A DNA stretch of 41,011 bases from an uncultured bacterium (lineage in GTDB: Bacteria; Vulcanimicrobiota; CADAWZ01), in NCBI GenBank assembly GCA_902790465.1, contig CADASF010000013.1, forward strand, positions 1 to 41,011, given 5' to 3'. The notes below the pieces were generated by a model. That model was not told the origin of the DNA. It did not search any database and worked only from the letters and a program-made list of their open reading frames with translations. The stretch's first letter is position 1, and every line of letters begins with the position of its first letter. This document shows positions 12,170 to 40,863 of this stretch, piece by piece. A program made the translations under genes and the position numbers.

Positions 12170-12817
12170 GTGAAAGAGCTTATAGATTTTAAATCTTATC
12201 CTGTTAATAATATGCTTTCTGATTTGTTGAAGGATAAGACAACGAAGAAAAATATTATTTTTGCCACGAGTGATTATGATGATGAAAAATTGGGAATAAA
12301 TGAGAAATCAGAAATAACTGTTGATATTCTTTCTCGTTCAGATTTATCTCTTATTCAGCCAAGAATTTGTAAAAGTTTTGAAGAACAGACAGAGAGAACG
12401 AGGAAAAAAGCAGAAGTTTTTACTCCTTCGTGGATTTGTAATAAGATGAACAACCAATTTGATATTGAATGGTTTGGTCGTGAGGGAGTTTTTAACAAAA
12501 CGGAAAATCAAGATTGGGAAGTAACATCTGAGCTTGTTTATTTTGAAAATTCTGATGATTGGCAAAAATATATAAAAACAACTTGTTTGGAAATTGCTTG
12601 TGGCGAAGCTCCGTTTATTGTGTCGAGGTATGATGTTTCAAGTGGAGATATGATTCCTATCAATAGGCGAATAGGGATTTTGGATAGAAAACTTAGGGTT
12701 GTCAGTGAAAATACTGATAACGAGGCTGATTGGCTAAATTGGGCTTTTTCTTCTTATAAAGCTGTCTATCTATATCGTGAATTGATTTCGTCCAGTCGAT
12801 ATCCGACTTGTCTGTAA
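12170..12817 (+). CDS. R-M methylase subunit M, N-terminal part (gene cut by inversion)
   Basis: The start is the GTG at 12170, six bases after GGGGGA. The sequence matches the N-terminal two thirds of the protein usually named restriction endonuclease subunit M: ERTRKKAEVFTPSWICNKMNN, the SAM-binding motif I-like TCLEIACGEAPFIVSRYD, then RIGILDRKLRVVSENTDNEADWLNWAF. Family-type sequence ends exactly at SYKAVY (200 codons, to 12769); the following 15 residues are unrelated and encode the reverse of the NPPY gene. The missing rest, beginning GYELQGDNLLIARINLLL, is on the opposite strand at 14939-15247 in the matching phase. Rejoined, the protein would be 302 residues. As it stands the gene product is truncated and probably inactive. 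Confidence 0.85.
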   Translation: MKELIDFKSYPVNNMLSDLLKDKTTKKNIIFATSDYDDEKLGINEKSEITVDILSRSDLSLIQPRICKSFEEQTERTRKKAEVFTPSWICNKMNNQFDIEWFGREGVFNKTENQDWEVTSELVYFENSDDWQKYIKTTCLEIACGEAPFIVSRYDVSSGDMIPINRRIGILDRKLRVVSENTDNEADWLNWAFSSYKAVYLYRELISSSRYPTCL

Positions 12818-13724
12818 AGTCCTGTAGAGGGACAAATCGCCATTTTTCAGGTGGATTATCTTGTGTTACTTTTAATACTCCCAATAAAGCTCTTGCAAAT
12901 TTTGATTTAACATATTTTAATGCAGATTGTGTTTCACTTAGTGAATCAAATGCTCCAATCATTATAAATGATTGAGTAACTCCAATTAGGGGCTTCCCAA
13001 TTAATGGTTCTCCGATTAAAGGTGTAGATGAAACCTCTCCTATAGCTCCACTACCATTAGATTTAGGCAAGATTACTTTATATTTATATAAATTACTGAC
13101 TTTATTTACATAGTCTTTCCTTAGATATTTATAAACTCTTTCGTTATTTTCTCTTCCCAAAATTTGTATATATTCTCTATTGTCATTAGGTTTTTCATCA
13201 TAAAAAATTTGTGGCAATTTTAAAAAAATATTTGTTCGTAAATCAAAAGAAGCTCCAACCAAATTTACTGATTCAGGAATTTCTTGTTTTAAAACATCTG
13301 TGAAACGATATGGAACTGCTCCTATCATTATTTCTGAAATGCTTTTGTTTAATTTTTTATTTACTTTTTTTAAAATATTATTTAATTCTTTATATGGAGT
13401 AAATACTTTTATTGCTCCAAAATTTTTTTCTTTATCTCTATATGTAATTGCAACTCCACCTTTTACATCGGTGTTTTTAAAAACTTTTGAACTATCTGCC
13501 TCATATTCAAGAACTTTAAAATGTGGATCATTTAACAATTTTTCATTCCAAACTTTAGGAGTATTACCAGCATTAAACAAAAATCTTGCAGGAGTTACTA
13601 ACTCAACTTTATCTGCCATTTCATAAGCTACTTCCATAAATTTATCATATATAGAAGGCTGGCGTCCATTGTCTTCTTTTTCTTCTTGATAAGGCGGATT
13701 TCCAATAACAAAATCAAATTTCAT
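12702..13724 (-). CDS. Eco57I-type N6-adenine methylase (NPPY) subunit, C-terminus replaced by inversion
   Basis: A 340-residue reading frame. It begins MKFDFVIGNPPYQEE, the catalytic NPPY motif IV of N6-adenine methyltransferases. PARFLFNAGNTPKVWN and KGGVAITYRD follow, as in Eco57I-type restriction-modification methylases. A region around IGEPLIGKPLIG may belong to target recognition. It has no motif I of its own, so SAM binding probably comes from a partner subunit. Family sequence runs to DIDRQLYKK (12750), then is replaced by an unrelated tail that reads the subunit M gene backwards. The expected end, YNLSQDEIDFIETNVKEMN, is encoded on the plus strand at 15268-15327 in the matching phase. 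Rejoined, the protein is 344 residues. GAGAGG precedes the ATG at 13724. Confidence 0.87.
   Translation of the reverse strand: MKFDFVIGNPPYQEEKEDNGRQPSIYDKFMEVAYEMADKVELVTPARFLFNAGNTPKVWNEKLLNDPHFKVLEYEADSSKVFKNTDVKGGVAITYRDKEKNFGAIKVFTPYKELNNILKKVNKKLNKSISEIMIGAVPYRFTDVLKQEIPESVNLVGASFDLRTNIFLKLPQIFYDEKPNDNREYIQILGRENNERVYKYLRKDYVNKVSNLYKYKVILPKSNGSGAIGEVSSTPLIGEPLIGKPLIGVTQSFIMIGAFDSLSETQSALKYVKSKFARALLGVLKVTQDNPPEKWRFVPLQDFTDKSDIDWTKSIHDIDRQLYKKKKPNLANQPRYQYFH
12750..12769 (+). repeat. left inverted repeat of the R-M inversion
   Basis: CTTCTTATAAAGCTGTCTAT, identical over 20 bases to the reverse complement of 15248-15267. On the plus strand it encodes SYKAVY of subunit M. On the minus strand it encodes DRQLYKK of the NPPY subunit. 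Homology to both proteins breaks at its edges. Confidence 0.9.
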
Positions 13725-13858
13725 ATTTTTTCCTCTCGTTTTCTTCTTTTATTTTTTGTCCAATTACTCTTACGGAAAACAATTTTTGTTATTAATTTTG
13801 CAGTTAAATAATTTTCAAAAATAAGTAAATAAAAATTTGCTGTAAACTATCCAATATA

Positions 13859-14068
13859 TGCCTGTATACTGCCACTTTGTCATTGCGAGGCTTTAGCCGT
13901 GGCAATCTAAGCCTGTAAATTATTATTTACTTAAAAATTGAGTCGATTGCCTTTATTTATCCAATTTCTGCCTGGTCTATTTAATAAATTACTAAATTTA
14001 AATTAAGTGGTTGAGATTGCCACGGTCGCACAGCTCCCTCGCAATGACATCGCCCCTAAATACAGGCA
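13859..14068. repeat. MITE-like palindromic element (TGCCTGTAT ends)
   Basis: Both ends carry TGCCTGTAT / ATACAGGCA (13859-13867, 14060-14068) followed inward by GTCATTGCGAGG (13879-13890) and its partner CTCGCAATGAC. Further inward GTGGCAATCT pairs with AGATTGCCAC. The GTCATTGCGAG..GCAATCT core resembles dispersed palindromes seen in many bacterial genomes. About 115 bases of the left part recur inverted at 18519-18636. No coding capacity. Confidence 0.7.
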
Positions 14069-14113
14069 GTTTGAGTAGATTGTAAAACTGCACTATTTAA
14101 CAAATAATACAAA

Positions 14114-14258
14114 GTTTTGGGGTATAATAAAGGGAACGATTTCAATTTTCTATAGTAGTTTCTATAAAAATGCACTTAGAAAAAGAATGGTTATTTTTTT
14201 TAATTATACATAAACCTTGGGGTAAAATTGTTTAGTGAGTCTTATTATACACCAAAAC
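14114..14258. repeat. short element with 17-bp inverted terminal repeats
   Basis: GTTTTGGGGTATAATAA (14114-14130) is matched, with one mismatch, by TTATTATACACCAAAAC (14242-14258). The 111 bases between show no reading frame. It looks like a small nonautonomous insertion, but I see only this copy. Confidence 0.5.
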
Positions 14259-14319
14259 TAAAACTTGCAATTTCGTCACAAGTAGAAAGAAATATTAGCA
14301 AAAAACACTAAATAAGATA

Positions 14320-14400
14320 AATGTTATTTTGTGAGAAAAAGCGAACAACATCATGAGCTTGCGAGTGTTTAGAGTGAGCTTTTTCAAACAAAGTAACATT
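14320..14400. repeat. long imperfect hairpin, 27-base arms
   Basis: Arms 14320-14346 and 14374-14400 match at 22 of 27 positions (AATGTTA..GAAAAAGC / GCTTTTTC..TAACATT) around a 27-base loop. It is noncoding and lies just downstream of the Rpn-like gene on its strand. It could fold in RNA or be another nonautonomous palindromic element. Confidence 0.5.
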
Positions 14401-14447
14401 CGGCTAAAAATAAAAAAATAGTATTTTTGAAAATTTTCTTCTCGCCT

Positions 14448-14789
14448 TTAGAGGGTATTTAACTGTGCCAAATAAAAATCATGTTCTTCCTGTGGAATTT
14501 TTAAAGCCTTCATTGCTTTTTCAGCTGTTATATTCATAGTCTCCATTATTGATTTTATACTATTTAACAATGATTTAGCCATTCCGAGCTTTTCGCCCTC
14601 GGCTTTGCCTTTAGCAATTCCAAGCTTTTCGCCCTCGGCTTTGCCCTTAGCAATTCCAAGCTTTTCGCCCTCGGCTTTGCCCTTAGCAATATATTTATCT
14701 TTGTTCTGTTTTATATATTTATCCGCAGTTTTTTTCAATAAACTTGATATTTCCATTCTTCCCTTTTTCTTTTTTGTACTTTTTTTCAT
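14448..14789 (-). CDS. short Rpn-type nuclease C-terminal remnant with 12-residue repeats
   Basis: A 113-residue, lysine-rich helical protein. Three copies of AKGKAEGEKLGI (about residues 34-70) sit in a C-terminal part (SIKSIMETMNITAEKAMKAL..PQEEHDFYLAQL) like the tails of Rpn/PD-(D/E)XK family transposase-like proteins. In those proteins an xGxxEGxxxG coiled repeat follows the nuclease domain. The catalytic nuclease domain is absent, so this is a remnant or a short stand-alone product (Rpn genes are known to encode such short C-terminal proteins from internal starts). It lies inside the inverted segment, and in the restored orientation would sit between the two methylase genes. Confidence 0.6.
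   Translation of the reverse strand: MKKSTKKKKGRMEISSLLKKTADKYIKQNKDKYIAKGKAEGEKLGIAKGKAEGEKLGIAKGKAEGEKLGMAKSLLNSIKSIMETMNITAEKAMKALKIPQEEHDFYLAQLNTL
14581..14688 (-). repeat. 36-bp tandem repeat, three copies, in frame
   Basis: Three near-identical 36-base units (14581-14616, 14617-14652, 14653-14688) encode the AKGKAEGEKLGI repeats of the Rpn-like protein. A unit length divisible by three means copy-number change would keep the frame. Confidence 0.85.
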
Positions 14790-14860
14790 ACCCCATAACC
14801 CATTTTTATTTATTGCTCTCTAATATTTATTTTACCACAATATGTGCTAAATTACAATAA

Positions 14861-14932
14861 AAAAGGGACTGTGAAAAAGTATTTTTTTATATAATTAATG
14901 ACATCTATTCTATTTACTTTTTTCACAGCCCC
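14861..14932 (-). terminator. long-stem terminator after the subunit M C-terminal fragment
   Basis: GGGACTGTGAAAAAGTA (14865-14881) pairs with TACTTTTTTCACAGCCCC (14915-14932), with one bulged base, around a 33-base loop. On the minus strand a T6 run follows. It starts six bases after the stop of the fragment at 14939. In the flipped orientation it would end subunit M transcription. Confidence 0.7.
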
Positions 14933-14938
14933 TTCGGT

Positions 14939-15280
14939 TTACTTCTTCAAATCCCTATATTTTATCTCTTTGTTATTTTCCCAATCAAATACCACACAAT
15001 CTACTTCATCATCTTTTTTTTCTACTCCAAATAATAGCAACTGACCTTGATTTTCACAAGGCTTTTTAAAAGGAATCGTCTCAGTTATTCCGTCCATCTG
15101 CCAAAAATTCCAAGTAATAATATCCACAATTTCTCTCAATTCTTCATTTTTTGGATCACGATTCCATTTGTCTTTCATATATTCAACAAATGTCAAAAGT
15201 AGGTTTATTCGAGCAATAAGTAGGTTATCGCCTTGAAGTTCGTATCCATAGACAGCTTTATAAGAAGTACAATCTTTCAC
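14939..15280 (-). pseudogene. R-M methylase subunit M, C-terminal part (other side of the inversion)
   Basis: The reading frame shows 113 residues. From SYKAVYGYELQGDNLLIARI onward (GDNLLIARINLLLTFVEY, then DIITWNFWQMDGITETIPF and the C-terminal DWENNKEIKYRDLKK) it is the C-terminal third of restriction endonuclease subunit M. The first five residues (MKDCT) come from the reverse strand of the NPPY gene end and are not family sequence. It lacks motif I, which is in the fragment starting at 12170. The two fragments share SYKAVY at the 20-bp inverted repeat and are in the same phase when the segment is flipped. I see no proper ribosome binding site for it in this orientation. Probably not expressed or not functional alone. 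Confidence 0.85.
15248..15267 (-). repeat. right inverted repeat of the R-M inversion
   Basis: ATAGACAGCTTTATAAGAAG on the plus strand is the exact reverse complement of 12750-12769. It is embedded in the detached ends of both methylase genes. Confidence 0.9.
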
Positions 15281-15327
15281 AAGACGAGATCGACTTTATA
15301 GAGACAAATGTAAAAGAAATGAACTGA
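15248..15327 (+). pseudogene. detached C-terminus of the NPPY methylase subunit
   Basis: In frame this reads RQLYKKYNLSQDEIDFIETN then VKEMN and TGA at 15325-15327. It is the family's typical C-terminus and continues the NPPY gene (12702-13724, minus strand) in the correct phase once the segment is flipped. No start codon or ribosome binding site precedes it here. Its TGA overlaps the ATG of the helicase (TGATG), a coupling that only makes sense if the NPPY gene is upstream on this strand. Confidence 0.88.
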
Positions 15328-18300
15328 TGGCAGTATTTCGAAAATTGAGCCAAGAAAAAAAAGGAAATGATCTAAAGATGAACAGTGTCCCAAAAATTCA
15401 ATCAGCAATAAAAGTTATCCCTCAAATATATGCCTATAGCACTTTGAATGTTCCTTATCAAAATGGTTACATAAAAATTGGATATACAGAACAAGATGTC
15501 AATAAACGAATTTTACAGCAGACACAGACTGCAGGCATAAGGGCAAATCTTGAATGGCAGGGAAACGCAATTTTTGAAGAAAAAGGCGATAGATTTACAG
15601 ATCACGATTTCCATTTATATCTTCGCAAAAATGGCATACTACAGCCACAAGATTTGAAGAATAAAGATTTTCCTGAAAATGGCAGAAATGAATGGTTTCA
15701 CACAACTTCTGAAGAATCAAAAAAACTTTTTGATGAATTTAGGAAAAATCGTGGATTAACCAAGTTACAAGAAAAAGCCATTCCTTATCTCTTGCGTGCA
15801 GAACAAAAAGAAGCCATTGATATCACAAAAAGATATTATGACACTTCTGATAAAAAGAAAGAATTTTTGTGGAATGCAAAACCTCGTTTTGGAAAAACTC
15901 TTACAGTCTATGATTTTTGCAAGCAGATAAAAGCTGAAAAAATTTTGATTGTAACAAATCGTCCTGCTATCGCAAATTCTTGGTTTTCAGATTATGCAAA
16001 ATTTTTGGGTTCTGAATCAGGATATTATTTTGTAAGTGAAGTTGATTCTTTAAAGGGAAAAAATGGTGTTCTATCTCGTGAAGATTATGCAAATTTGGAC
16101 GAAGTGGAAGCAAAATTTATTGAGTTTGTGAGCCTTCAAGATTTAAAGGGAAGTAAATATTTTGGCGGTCATTATGATAAATTGCGTGAAGTAAGAGACA
16201 TTACTTGGGATATTCTTGTAATTGATGAAGCCCATGAAGGTGTCGATACATATAAAACAGATGTTGCTTTTGATAATATACATCAAAAGTTTACACTTCA
16301 CCTGTCTGGCACACCTTTTAAGGCTTTGGCAAATGAAAAATTTGATTCAGACGCCATTTTTAATTATACTTACGCAGATGAACAGAAAAAAAAGCGTGAT
16401 TGGGATTATTCTTTAGGTGAAAATCCTTATTTACCACTTCCAAAATTAAATCTTTATACTTACCAGATGTCAGAAATTATCCGTGACGAGATCTCACAGG
16501 GAATAGAAATAGATGGAGAAACAGAAGAATATGCTTTTGATTTGAATGAGTTTTTCAGTGTAAATAAAAATGGAAAGTTTATTCATGAATCTTCTGTTGA
16601 TAAATTTCTTGATTCCCTTACAGAAAAAAAGAAATTTCCATTTTCTACAGATGAATTGAGAGACGAATTAAAACACACATTTTGGTTTCTTGATAGAGTT
16701 GACAGTGCAAAGGCAATGGCTAAAAAACTAAAGGAACATAAGATTTTTAGAGATTATGAAATCGTTCTCGCTGCAGGTGATGGAAAAATTGATGATGACG
16801 ATGAAAATAAAAAGTCTTATGATAAAGTAGTTGAAGCAATAAAAAAATATGACAAGACAATAACCCTTTCTGTTGGTCAACTGACAACAGGGATAACTAT
16901 TCCTGAATGGACGGCTGTCTTGATGTTGTGTAATGTAAAATCTCCTGCACTGTATATGCAGGCTGCTTTTAGATGTCAAAATCCATGTTTGTTTAAGGTG
17001 GGGAATGAGTTTAAAAGAAAAGAAAATGGCTATGTTTTTGATTTCGATCCTGCTCGTACTTTGATTATTTTTGAAAAGTTTGCAAATGATCTTTCTGTAA
17101 AAACTGTTTCAGGTGGTGGAGATGTTGAAACAAGAAAGAAAAATGTTTGTGAACTGCTAAATTTCTTTCCTGTAATTGGAGAAGATGAAAATGGCGAATT
17201 AATCGAACTCGATGCAGAAAAAGTTTTGACAATACCACGCAAAATTAAATCTGTTGAAGTCGTCAGACGAGGATTTATGAGCAATTTCTTATTTCAAAAT
17301 ATACACAATATCTTTTCTGCTTCAAGTGATATTCTTGATATTATCAATCGTTTTGAGGCTGTGGAAGAACCTAAGAATTATTTGCAAGAAGGACTTGGAG
17401 ATGATCTTTCACTTGATGAAAATGGAAATATAGCCCTTGATGATGAATTTATAAATAATAAAACAAAAGAAATTTTTGGAGAAAAAATTTATGGTGTAAA
17501 TCAAATAGACACCTTTGTAGATGTACTTTATGATAAACCCATTGAAAAAGATGTAATTAATGAAGCTAAAAATATTCTTAAAAGTGATGTAAAATATATA
17601 ATTGATACTGTAAATAAAAATTATGGCTCTGATATTAAGCCAAATGTAAAAAAACAACTTGAAAATAAAATAAATGATTTTATTTCAGATTCTAAACAAG
17701 AGGTTATAAAAACAGTAGAGACAGATATTCAAGAAAGAGAAAAAGATAAAATAGAAGAGGGTATCAGAGACCATTTGAGAGGATTTTCTCGAACTATTCC
17801 TTCATTTTTGATGGCTTATGGAGATGAAAATGTAACATTGGAAAATTTCGACAAAATCGTTCCAGACAATGTATTTCAGGAAGTAACAGGCATAACACTT
17901 GATGAATTTAGATTGTTGAGAGATGGGGGAGTATGTAATGGAAAAGAATTTGATGGGCAGATTTTTGATTCAATCGTTTTCAATGATTCTGTAAAAGAAT
18001 TTTTGGCATTGAAAAAGAAATTGGCAAATTATTTTGATGAAAACAGCACTGAAGATATTTTTGATTATATCCCACCACAAAAGACAAATCAGATTTTTAC
18101 TCCCAAAAAAGTTGTAAAAAAAATGGTTGATATGTTGGAAGAAGAGAATCCAAATTGTTTTGATGATCCAAACAAAACTTTTATTGATCTGTATATGAAA
18201 TCAGGATTGTATATTGCCGAAATTGTAAAAAGACTTTACAAAAGCAAAAAGATGAAAGATATTTTTCCAGATGAAATGGAAAGATTGAAACATATTTTTG

Positions 18301-18473
18301 AAAAGCAGGTTTTTGGGCTTGCTCCAACAGAAATTATATATAAAATAGCAACAAATTATATTTTAGGCTTTGATGAAAATTTAGATATAAAGAAATACAA
18401 TTTTAGACATCTAAACACTCTGCCTTATGCTAAAAACGGAACACTTAACAACTATCTAGAATTTTTATTCTGA
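15327..18473 (+). CDS. R-M helicase-nuclease subunit: GIY-YIG (T5orf172-like), DEAD/DEAH helicase, methylase-like C-terminus
   Basis: A 1,048-residue protein. Residues about 28-130 form a GIY-YIG/T5orf172-like nuclease (IPQIYAYST, GYIKIGYTEQDVNKRI, DHDFHLYL, EWFHTT). A superfamily 2 helicase follows: AKPRFGKTLTVYDF (Walker A-like), LVIDEAHEG (DEAH), LHLSGTPF, and VGQLTTGITIPEW with QAAFRCQNP (motif VI region). The C-terminus (about 915-1048) has QIFTPKKVVKKMVDMLEEE and DLYMKSGLYIAEI, an N6-methylase N-terminal-like and motif I-like region. It may complement the NPPY subunit, which lacks these. This is the third gene of a known operon type (subunit M, Eco57I-like methylase, helicase). The ATG overlaps the stop of the detached NPPY C-terminus; its own ribosome binding site is weak. 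The gene itself looks intact. Confidence 0.9.
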   Translation: MAVFRKLSQEKKGNDLKMNSVPKIQSAIKVIPQIYAYSTLNVPYQNGYIKIGYTEQDVNKRILQQTQTAGIRANLEWQGNAIFEEKGDRFTDHDFHLYLRKNGILQPQDLKNKDFPENGRNEWFHTTSEESKKLFDEFRKNRGLTKLQEKAIPYLLRAEQKEAIDITKRYYDTSDKKKEFLWNAKPRFGKTLTVYDFCKQIKAEKILIVTNRPAIANSWFSDYAKFLGSESGYYFVSEVDSLKGKNGVLSREDYANLDEVEAKFIEFVSLQDLKGSKYFGGHYDKLREVRDITWDILVIDEAHEGVDTYKTDVAFDNIHQKFTLHLSGTPFKALANEKFDSDAIFNYTYADEQKKKRDWDYSLGENPYLPLPKLNLYTYQMSEIIRDEISQGIEIDGETEEYAFDLNEFFSVNKNGKFIHESSVDKFLDSLTEKKKFPFSTDELRDELKHTFWFLDRVDSAKAMAKKLKEHKIFRDYEIVLAAGDGKIDDDDENKKSYDKVVEAIKKYDKTITLSVGQLTTGITIPEWTAVLMLCNVKSPALYMQAAFRCQNPCLFKVGNEFKRKENGYVFDFDPARTLIIFEKFANDLSVKTVSGGGDVETRKKNVCELLNFFPVIGEDENGELIELDAEKVLTIPRKIKSVEVVRRGFMSNFLFQNIHNIFSASSDILDIINRFEAVEEPKNYLQEGLGDDLSLDENGNIALDDEFINNKTKEIFGEKIYGVNQIDTFVDVLYDKPIEKDVINEAKNILKSDVKYIIDTVNKNYGSDIKPNVKKQLENKINDFISDSKQEVIKTVETDIQEREKDKIEEGIRDHLRGFSRTIPSFLMAYGDENVTLENFDKIVPDNVFQEVTGITLDEFRLLRDGGVCNGKEFDGQIFDSIVFNDSVKEFLALKKKLANYFDENSTEDIFDYIPPQKTNQIFTPKKVVKKMVDMLEEENPNCFDDPNKTFIDLYMKSGLYIAEIVKRLYKSKKMKDIFPDEMERLKHIFEKQVFGLAPTEIIYKIATNYILGFDENLDIKKYNFRHLNTLPYAKNGTLNNYLEFLF

Positions 18474-18518
18474 GGCTGTGAAAAAATTAAATAGATTGAG
18501 TACAGATTTCTAAATAGA

Positions 18519-18636
18519 GCCGATCGACTTAATTTTAAGTAAATAATAATTTACAGGCTTAGATTGCCACGGTCGCACAGCTCCCTCGCAATGACAAAGT
18601 GGCAGTATACAGGCATATAATATTAGATAGTTTAGA
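18519..18636 (-). repeat. second, inverted copy of the GTCATTGCGAG palindromic element (partial)
   Basis: The reverse complement of this stretch matches the region 13842-13952, including ACTATC..ATATGCCTGTAT, GCCACTTTGTCATTGCGAGG, GTGGCAATCTAAGCCTG and TTATTATTTACTT. Only the left part of the 210-bp element is present. It lies between the helicase stop and the bidirectional terminator. The helicase-to-amidohydrolase gap (18474-18754) holds no gene. Confidence 0.75.
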
Positions 18637-18701
18637 GCAACTTTTTATTTATTTTTATTAACTATCACAACGAGTTAATTTACGAAGATTATATAAAAGT
18701 T

Positions 18702-39867: not shown

Positions 39868-40863
39868 ATGCTTTACAAATCAATAGACCTTTTTGCTGGA
39901 ATAGGTGGAATTAGAAAAGGTTTTGAAAATATTTTTCAAGATAGATTAAAAACAGTATTTGTAAGTGAATTTGATAAATTTGCACAAAAAACATATAAAA
40001 TTAATTTTCATGATTCTTTTAAAATTTCAGGTGATATAACAAAAATAGATGAAAAGGATATACCAAAATTTGATATTTGTTTTGCTGGTTTTCCATGTCA
40101 GGCTTTTTCAAAAGCAGGTAAACAAGAGGGATTTAGTGATAATTATAAAGGAATATGTAGAGGAACTCTTTTTCAAGATGTAGTCAGAATATGTGAATAT
40201 CATAAACCAAAAGTCATTTTTTGTGAAAATGTAAAAGGTCTTTTGATTCAGGATCATGGCAATACTTTCAAAATAATAAAAAAATCTTTTGAAGAAATAG
40301 GATATAATGTTTTTTATAAAATTTTAAACAGTAAAGATTTTGGTGTCCCTCAAAATAGAGAGCGTATTTATATAGTATGTTTTAGAAAAAATATTAATAT
40401 AGAACACTTTGATTTTCCTGTTGGTCGCTTTCAAAAAACTTCTATTTTCGATATATTAGATCCCGCTCCAATATCGTCTAAATATTATTTAAGTGATGTT
40501 TATCTTAATTTTTTAAGAAATCACAAAGCAAGACAAGAAGCAAAAGGAAATGGTTTTGGCTATGAAATAAGAGATTTGAATGGAATTGCAAATGCTATTG
40601 TCTGTGGTGGCATGGGGAGAGAACGCAATTTGATAATAGATGATAGAGAACATTCACTTGTTCCAATAACTCATATTAAGGGAAAAATAAATGAAGAAAA
40701 TATAAGAAAGATGACACCGAGAGAGTGGGCGAGACTTCAGGGATTCCCTGAAGATTTTAAATTAGAGCTTGCAGATACTCATTTATATAAGCAATTTGGA
40801 AATAGCGTTACTATAAATGTTATTGAAGATATAGCTACAAAAATAATGGAGATATTAGAATAG
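39868..40863 (+). CDS. DNA (cytosine-5) methyltransferase
   Basis: A 331-residue type II C5 methylase. Motif I is SIDLFAGIGGIRKGFE, motif IV is CFAGFPCQAFSKAG with catalytic Cys (about residue 78), motif VI is FCENVKGL, motif VIII is QNRERIYIVCF, motif IX is REWARLQGFPEDF and motif X is FGNSVTINVIEDIA. All are intact. AAGGAG precedes the ATG. No restriction endonuclease is seen on its downstream side; only a 27-codon frame cut off by a repeat follows. It could be an orphan methylase, or its partner could lie beyond the window. Confidence 0.95.
   Translation: MLYKSIDLFAGIGGIRKGFENIFQDRLKTVFVSEFDKFAQKTYKINFHDSFKISGDITKIDEKDIPKFDICFAGFPCQAFSKAGKQEGFSDNYKGICRGTLFQDVVRICEYHKPKVIFCENVKGLLIQDHGNTFKIIKKSFEEIGYNVFYKILNSKDFGVPQNRERIYIVCFRKNINIEHFDFPVGRFQKTSIFDILDPAPISSKYYLSDVYLNFLRNHKARQEAKGNGFGYEIRDLNGIANAIVCGGMGRERNLIIDDREHSLVPITHIKGKINEENIRKMTPREWARLQGFPEDFKLELADTHLYKQFGNSVTINVIEDIATKIMEILE

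What the first reader, a model, noticed from the sequence alone, without database searches (positions are those of the whole stretch)
12170..15329. A 2.5-kb inversion between 20-bp repeats breaks two restriction-modification genes at once
Seen: CTTCTTATAAAGCTGTCTAT at 12750-12769 recurs exactly inverted at 15248-15267. Flipping the 2,478 bp between gives an intact subunit M (200 codons + 102 codons + stop) and an intact NPPY subunit (325 codons + 19 codons + stop). Both are in frame, and the NPPY stop overlaps the helicase start. Known: the three-gene order subunit M, Eco57I-like methylase, helicase exists in other genomes, and the motifs SYKAVYGYELQGDNLL and DRQLYKKYNL are contiguous in homologues. 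Inference: this is an intragenic invertible switch that turns a whole R-M system off, or an inversion that fixed recently. A switch whose repeats lie inside two genes and truncate both at once would be a compact defence on/off device. I know of inversion-type phase variation for type I hsdS genes and of intragenic invertons, but not of this arrangement in this family.
Basis: partly seen in the sequence, partly recalled or inferred. Interest (0 to 1): 0.95.

Follow-up and report, generated by a model that had tools for sequence, protein, structure and literature searches.

The report
Invertase-like flip disabling a restriction-modification operon
A 2.5-kb piece of DNA between two 20-letter mirror repeats has flipped and cut two genes of a bacterial DNA-defence operon in half, and the repeats carry the core sequence shared by repeats next to a known family of DNA-flipping enzymes that this genome also encodes, so this may be a defence on/off switch, although nobody has yet seen it flip back.

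Summary
The 20-bp inverted repeats at 12750-12769 and 15248-15267 are the only copies in the genome. A virtual flip of 2,478 bp restores a 302-codon subunit M and a 344-codon NPPY (Eco57I-like) subunit N, in frame and upstream of helicase H. M-N-H on one strand is the usual order in relatives, and no fetched relative is inverted. The repeat is specific to this genome: 79 relatives match at only 6.2 of 20 positions.

New here: the genome encodes an intact PsrA-family tyrosine invertase beside an hsdS gene on another contig. Inverted repeats of PsrA-type loci in other organisms share the core TTATGAGAAG. TTATRAGAAG occurs twice in the 41-kb window, exactly in the two repeats. On the M side the core falls on two serines where 105 of 108 relatives have Ala at the second. 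On the N side it uses two of only four AAG lysine codons in the gene.

Best reading: a PsrA-type site-specific inversion in trans that leaves the system OFF. Reversibility is not shown. The contig runs unbroken through both junctions, and a sister species has deleted the system. A single fixed inversion remains a serious rival.

The parts
12170..12769 (+). subunit M, codons 1-200 (motifs AEVFTP and CGEAPF); now runs on into 15 foreign residues and stops at 12817
   Evidence: relatives
12750..12769 (+). left 20-bp inverted repeat CTTCTTATAAAGCTGTCTAT; core TTATAAGAAG on the minus strand at 12750-12759; in M it encodes (S)SYKAVY
12750..13724 (-). NPPY subunit N (Eco57I-type), codons 1-325; now runs on into 15 foreign residues and stops at 12702
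12770..15247 (.). 2,478-bp inverted segment
13813..14110 (.). copy of a multicopy element (about 40 good copies in the genome), between M and N in the restored order
14448..14789 (-). orphan 113-aa ORF with 12-residue repeats, of the same kind as an ORF near another recombinase in this genome (L128)
14939..15247 (-). subunit M, codons 201-302 and stop (YGYELQGDNLL ... WNFWQMDG)
15248..15267 (-). right 20-bp inverted repeat; core TTATAAGAAG on the plus strand at 15258-15267; in N it encodes DRQLYKK
15268..15327 (+). N codons 326-344 and stop (YNLSQDEIDFIETNVKEMN)
   Evidence: conservation
15327..18473 (+). subunit H: T5orf172 + ResIII helicase + C-terminal methylase-like half, intact

Best explanation
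The window holds an M-N-H restriction-modification operon in which a site-specific tyrosine invertase of the PsrA family, encoded elsewhere in the genome beside an hsdS gene, has inverted 2,478 bp between two 20-bp sites lying inside M and N. Each site carries the PsrA-type core TTATRAGAAG. The inversion cuts M after codon 200 and N after codon 325 and turns N against the operon, so the methylase pair is lost and the system is OFF. The same enzyme could restore it. Shown: the inversion, its exact repeats, the intact virtual flip, the presence of an intact invertase gene, and the shared core. Inferred: that this enzyme acts here, that OFF means no methylation or restriction, and that flipping still goes on.
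For: Exact repeats, unique in the genome, and both genes restored in frame. Normal conservation of restored M and N otherwise: 2 of 79 and 4 of 81 conserved columns depart. An invertase gene on contig C69 is 60-64% identical to tyrosine recombinases beside hsdS genes in other organisms, one annotated PsrA, keeps the conserved columns R127, K152, H215, R218, H241 and Y250 (catalytic residues by general knowledge), and sits beside hsdS. The k-mer shared by most PsrA-type loci among their inverted repeats is TTATGAGAAG. Repeats there are often 16-21 bp, and several end at the same ...GAAG edge as the window's. TTATRAGAAG is found 42 times in 3.05 Mb and twice in the window, in the two repeats. 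Outside the repeats, 0.05% of window 20-mers hold the core within one mismatch. Among repeats of 14-40 bp, 1 of 107 in relatives' loci hold it, against 9 of 64 in PsrA-type loci. Of the 42 core sites, only the window pair shares 20 bp. The M side uses S194 S195, where A195 is present in 105 of 108 relatives; the N side uses two of its four AAG codons out of 39 lysines. L109, a related R-M system, has inverted N cassettes and a PsrA-type invertase. PsrA acts at a 15-bp intragenic repeat (PMC4948785, PMC7096588).
Against: No invertase in the window contig. The core here is TTATAAGAAG, one base off the PsrA consensus, although that variant exists in an E. faecalis locus and TTATAAGAAC in L109. 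The core overlaps YEK codons of hsdS, so part of its conservation may be coding rather than recombination. The repeat is not conserved in the family. No genome with the other orientation of this locus was found. The contig is unbroken through both junctions. The sister species has deleted the system, so it may simply be decaying.
Confidence: 0.52

Rival explanations
1. A one-time inversion by illegitimate or short-homology recombination at a chance 20-bp match broke M and N and is now fixed; the system is a young pseudo-operon on its way out, as in the sister species.
For: The sister species G001 has the same flanking genes but only the start of M and the last 61 residues of H, 67% identical. 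Relatives show many broken versions of this system. The locus is full of multicopy elements. The contig is unbroken, so one orientation dominates.
Against: A 20-bp M-N inverted match is far outside the chance range, and it carries the core of an invertase family present in the genome. Apart from the inversion, M, N and H have no stops or frameshifts and no excess of unusual residues.
Confidence: 0.34
2. Inversion by another recombinase of this genome (XerC/D-like on C5, or the phage-type integrases on C36 and C101), not by the PsrA-type one.
For: Three other tyrosine recombinases are encoded.
Against: None lies near the locus. The core matches PsrA-type repeats, not a known site of those families. 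No serine recombinase family hit in the genome.
Confidence: 0.08
3. Assembly artefact or chimera.
For: A draft genome of 121 contigs; no reads could be examined.
Against: A 20-bp repeat is shorter than the usual smallest assembly word of 21, and both reciprocal junctions would have to be false at the same repeat. The contig is otherwise colinear with the sister species on both sides.
Confidence: 0.05

Closest known systems
PsrA / hsdS inverton of Streptococcus pneumoniae (cod locus, type I R-M)
   Same: Tyrosine invertase of the same family; short inverted repeats inside coding sequence of R-M genes (15-bp IR1, PMC4948785, PMC7096588); the core TTATRAGAAG is shared with repeats of PsrA-type loci.
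   Different: There the inversion swaps specificity alleles and the invertase is adjacent. Here the repeats lie in two different subunit genes, both are truncated at once, the system is not type I, and the invertase is on another contig.
M-N-H system with PsrA-type N cassettes in L109 (IMGVR_UViG_2524614553)
   Same: Same M family, NPPY subunit family and helicase family; PsrA-type invertase 61% identical to the one in this genome; inverted repeat with core TTATAAGAAC.
   Different: The repeats lie at the start of N and swap N variants fused to H; not an on/off break of M and N.
M / Eco57I methylase / DEAD helicase operons, e.g. Bifidobacterium longum plasmid NZ_CP065398 and gut contig MT835780 (L013)
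   Same: Same three genes and order.
   Different: No inversion; no 20-bp repeat.
Short-repeat invertons in general (Sekulovic 2018, PMC5903667)
   Same: Inverted repeats of 10-20 nt, invertase may be encoded elsewhere.
   Different: Most are intergenic promoter switches; both orientations were seen in reads there, not here.

Membership tests
PsrA-type R-M inverton | PsrA-family tyrosine recombinase with conserved R-K-H-R-H-Y residues in the genome | tested here: met
   C69:11643-12446, 60-64% identical to hsdS-associated members including one annotated PsrA, conserved columns present
PsrA-type R-M inverton | recombinase encoded next to the invertible segment | tested here: not met
   none on the window contig C13; nearest is on C69 beside hsdS
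PsrA-type R-M inverton | short inverted repeats inside coding sequence of R-M genes | tested here: met
   20-bp repeats in M and N
PsrA-type R-M inverton | repeats share the core found in other PsrA-type loci | tested here: met
   TTATAAGAAG, one base from TTATGAGAAG; only two TTATRAGAAG in the window
PsrA-type R-M inverton | inversion exchanges specificity alleles | tested here: not met
   inversion truncates M and N; no alternative N cassette in the window
invertible on/off switch (phase variation) | both orientations exist in the population | not testable with these tools
   no reads; no other genome of the species with the locus; contig continuous in one orientation
invertible on/off switch (phase variation) | one orientation restores intact genes | tested here: met
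M-N-H restriction-modification operon | M, Eco57I-type NPPY subunit and ResIII/T5orf172 helicase, same strand, in this order | tested here: inconclusive
   all three present; order and strand met only after virtual flip

The most novel reading that the evidence does not exclude
A trans-acting PsrA-type invertase, best known from reshuffling type I hsdS genes, also operates a true reversible ON/OFF switch of a second, non-type-I R-M operon through sites buried in two different subunit genes, so that one flip truncates both methylase subunits and reverses N.
Probability: 0.36. Interest if true: 0.75.

Novelty: new variant of a known kind. Interest (0 to 1): 0.56.

Why it matters
If it flips, one invertase would couple specificity switching of type I systems to on/off switching of another defence operon, and sites hidden in conserved coding motifs would be easy to miss in inverton surveys that look at promoters. 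The core motif TTATRAGAAG found here gives a simple way to search for further PsrA-type targets outside hsdS. If it does not flip, the locus is a clean example of a defence system broken by a single reciprocal inversion in a lineage that is losing it.

Tried and rejected
Conservation of the repeat across the family: rejected, 79 pairs average 6.2 of 20 matches against 6.0 for random pairing, maximum 11. A shared recombinase site elsewhere in the genome as a full 20-mer: none with up to 3 mismatches. Serine invertase: none. M simply overwritten by N through conversion: considered because M has atypical SS residues, but N also shows two rare AAG codons at the core, so direction is left open. The 17 of 20 match near the L109 invertase start: suggestive, but not seen upstream of the C69 gene or its sister copy. 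Exact 20-mer in viral contigs: none. Solved structures by sequence for M, N, H: none. Promoters and terminators: at chance level. PsrA query as a single protein in viral contigs: no relative; an alignment worked.

Full report
Observation. The repeat CTTCTTATAAAGCTGTCTAT at 12750-12769 recurs exactly inverted at 15248-15267, with 2,478 bp between. Apart from copies of a multicopy element it is the longest inverted match in the window, and the 20-mer has no other copy in the 3.05-Mb genome, even with three mismatches. Flipping the interior restores a 302-codon subunit M (GTG at 12170; 200 + 102 codons) and a 344-codon NPPY subunit N (325 + 19 codons), followed by helicase H with TGATG overlap. 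Relatives align to H only from about residue 22, so the real H start may be the ATG at 15378.

What the genes are. N has the Pfam Eco57I domain; H has ResIII and T5orf172 domains. PADLOC places M and N among type II methyltransferases, and N and H match a type IIG model in part. M carries AEVFTP, CGEAPF and GYELQGDNLL; N starts at the NPPY motif. By general knowledge of amino-methyltransferases, M and N look like two halves of one methylase (inference). In relatives the order M-N-H on one strand is the rule. None of the fetched relatives is inverted, but the search favoured full-length M. In the present state M loses 102 residues with many invariant positions and N loses its conserved last 19. 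Each ends in 15 foreign residues.

Repeat or accident? In 79 M-N pairs of relatives the same two sites match at 6.2 of 20 positions (random pairing 6.0, maximum 11). The longest exact inverted match between M and N in 86 loci is 10 typically and 15 at most. So the repeat is special to this genome. On the M side its first codons are Ser-Ser, where 105 of 108 relatives have Ala at 195 and Ser is not among the commonest residues at 194. On the N side the protein sequence DRQLYKK is typical, but N uses AAG for only 4 of 39 lysines, and two of those four are the adjacent lysines in the repeat. Apart from this, the restored proteins depart from conserved columns as often as other members do: 2 of 79 for M and 4 of 81 for N. 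There is no other stop or frameshift.

An invertase. The genome has no serine recombinase family hit and four tyrosine recombinases, none on the window contig. One, on contig C69, sits downstream of an hsdS gene. It is 61% identical to a recombinase in L109 and 60-64% identical to recombinases beside hsdS genes in Ruminococcus, Segatella, Enterococcus and Streptococcus, the last annotated PsrA. The conserved columns R127, K152, H215, R218, H241 and Y250, the catalytic residues by general knowledge of the family, are present. The same-genus genome G001 has it at 97% identity. PsrA inverts pneumococcal hsdS genes at intragenic repeats as short as 15 bp (PMC4948785, PMC7096588).

The core. Exact inverted repeats of 14 bp or more were collected from 16 loci with PsrA-type recombinases, without reference to the window. 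The most widely shared k-mers are those of TTATGAGAAG, in six loci. Repeats there are often only 16-21 bp, and several end exactly at GAAG, like the window's. The variant TTATAAGAAG occurs at an E. faecalis site, and TTATAAGAAC in L109. TTATRAGAAG occurs 42 times in the whole genome (control 88) and twice in the window, precisely in the two repeats. Outside the repeats, 0.05% of window 20-mers hold the core within one mismatch; among inverted repeats of 14-40 bp, 1 of 107 do in relatives' loci and 9 of 64 in PsrA-type loci. Of the 42 core sites only the window pair shares more than 15 bp.

A precedent in the same R-M family. In L109, M is followed by an H-N fusion, then an N copy without a start codon in frame and an inverted N copy, then a PsrA-type recombinase. 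A 36-bp perfect inverted repeat with TTATAAGAAC joins the fused and the inverted N, and a 29-bp one lies at the NPPY motif. So PsrA-type enzymes are associated with N genes of this family. There the result would be variant swapping, not truncation (inference).

Context against a live switch. G001 keeps the flanking genes but only the start of M, the multicopy element and the last 61 residues of H, 67% identical. The system was therefore present in the ancestor at this place and has been lost there. The contig passes through both junctions, which suggests that one orientation dominates in the sequenced population, whereas at least seven hsdS matches in this genome lie within 2 kb of a contig start; those breaks may have other causes. 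Decay after a single inversion cannot be excluded.

Conclusion. The inversion is real with high probability. That a PsrA-type invertase made it is the best-supported mechanism (about 0.5). That it is a working reversible switch is possible (about 0.36) and needs reads or a flipping assay. It works like a PsrA inverton but fails two features of the classical kind: the invertase is not adjacent, and no specificity alleles are exchanged.

Noticed in passing
L109:7218-15213 (IMGVR_UViG_2524614553_000001): M-N-H type system with H-N fusion, a start-less N copy, an inverted N copy and an adjacent PsrA-type invertase: an hsdS-like inverton in a non-type-I R-M system.
   Followed up: partly
own genome, contigs C3, C5, C7, C8, C15, C26, C27, C31, C32, C35, C52, C64, C69, C72, C74, C107: 25 Methylase_S (hsdS) domain matches on 16 contigs, at least seven within 2 kb of a contig start; suggests extensive hsdS shuffling.
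   Followed up: no
window 13813-14110 and 18486-18655: Multicopy element with about 40 good copies in the genome and many in the sister species; copies lie on both sides of the NPPY-to-helicase part, and in restored orientation would be direct repeats able to delete it.
   Followed up: partly
L170:7150-7865 (sister genome G001, contig C42): Same chromosomal place with the R-M system deleted; only the start of M and the last 61 residues of H remain.
   Followed up: yes
L040:11190-11197: Run of eight G inside an otherwise intact N gene, out of frame: a possible slipped-strand on/off site for N in another genome.
   Followed up: no
L122:1566-4533: A PsrA-like recombinase overlaps an N-6 methylase-like gene and lies upstream of a divergent M gene in a viral contig.
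   Followed up: no
window 14448-14789: Orphan ORF with three near-identical 36-bp units (AKGKAEGEKLGI), like a short ORF beside another recombinase on C36.
   Followed up: no
window 39868-40863: Cytosine DNA methyltransferase gene near the contig end, a second R-M type gene in the window.
   Followed up: no
L038:1949-2988: Second, inverted, frameshifted N-like gene upstream of M in another genome.
   Followed up: partly
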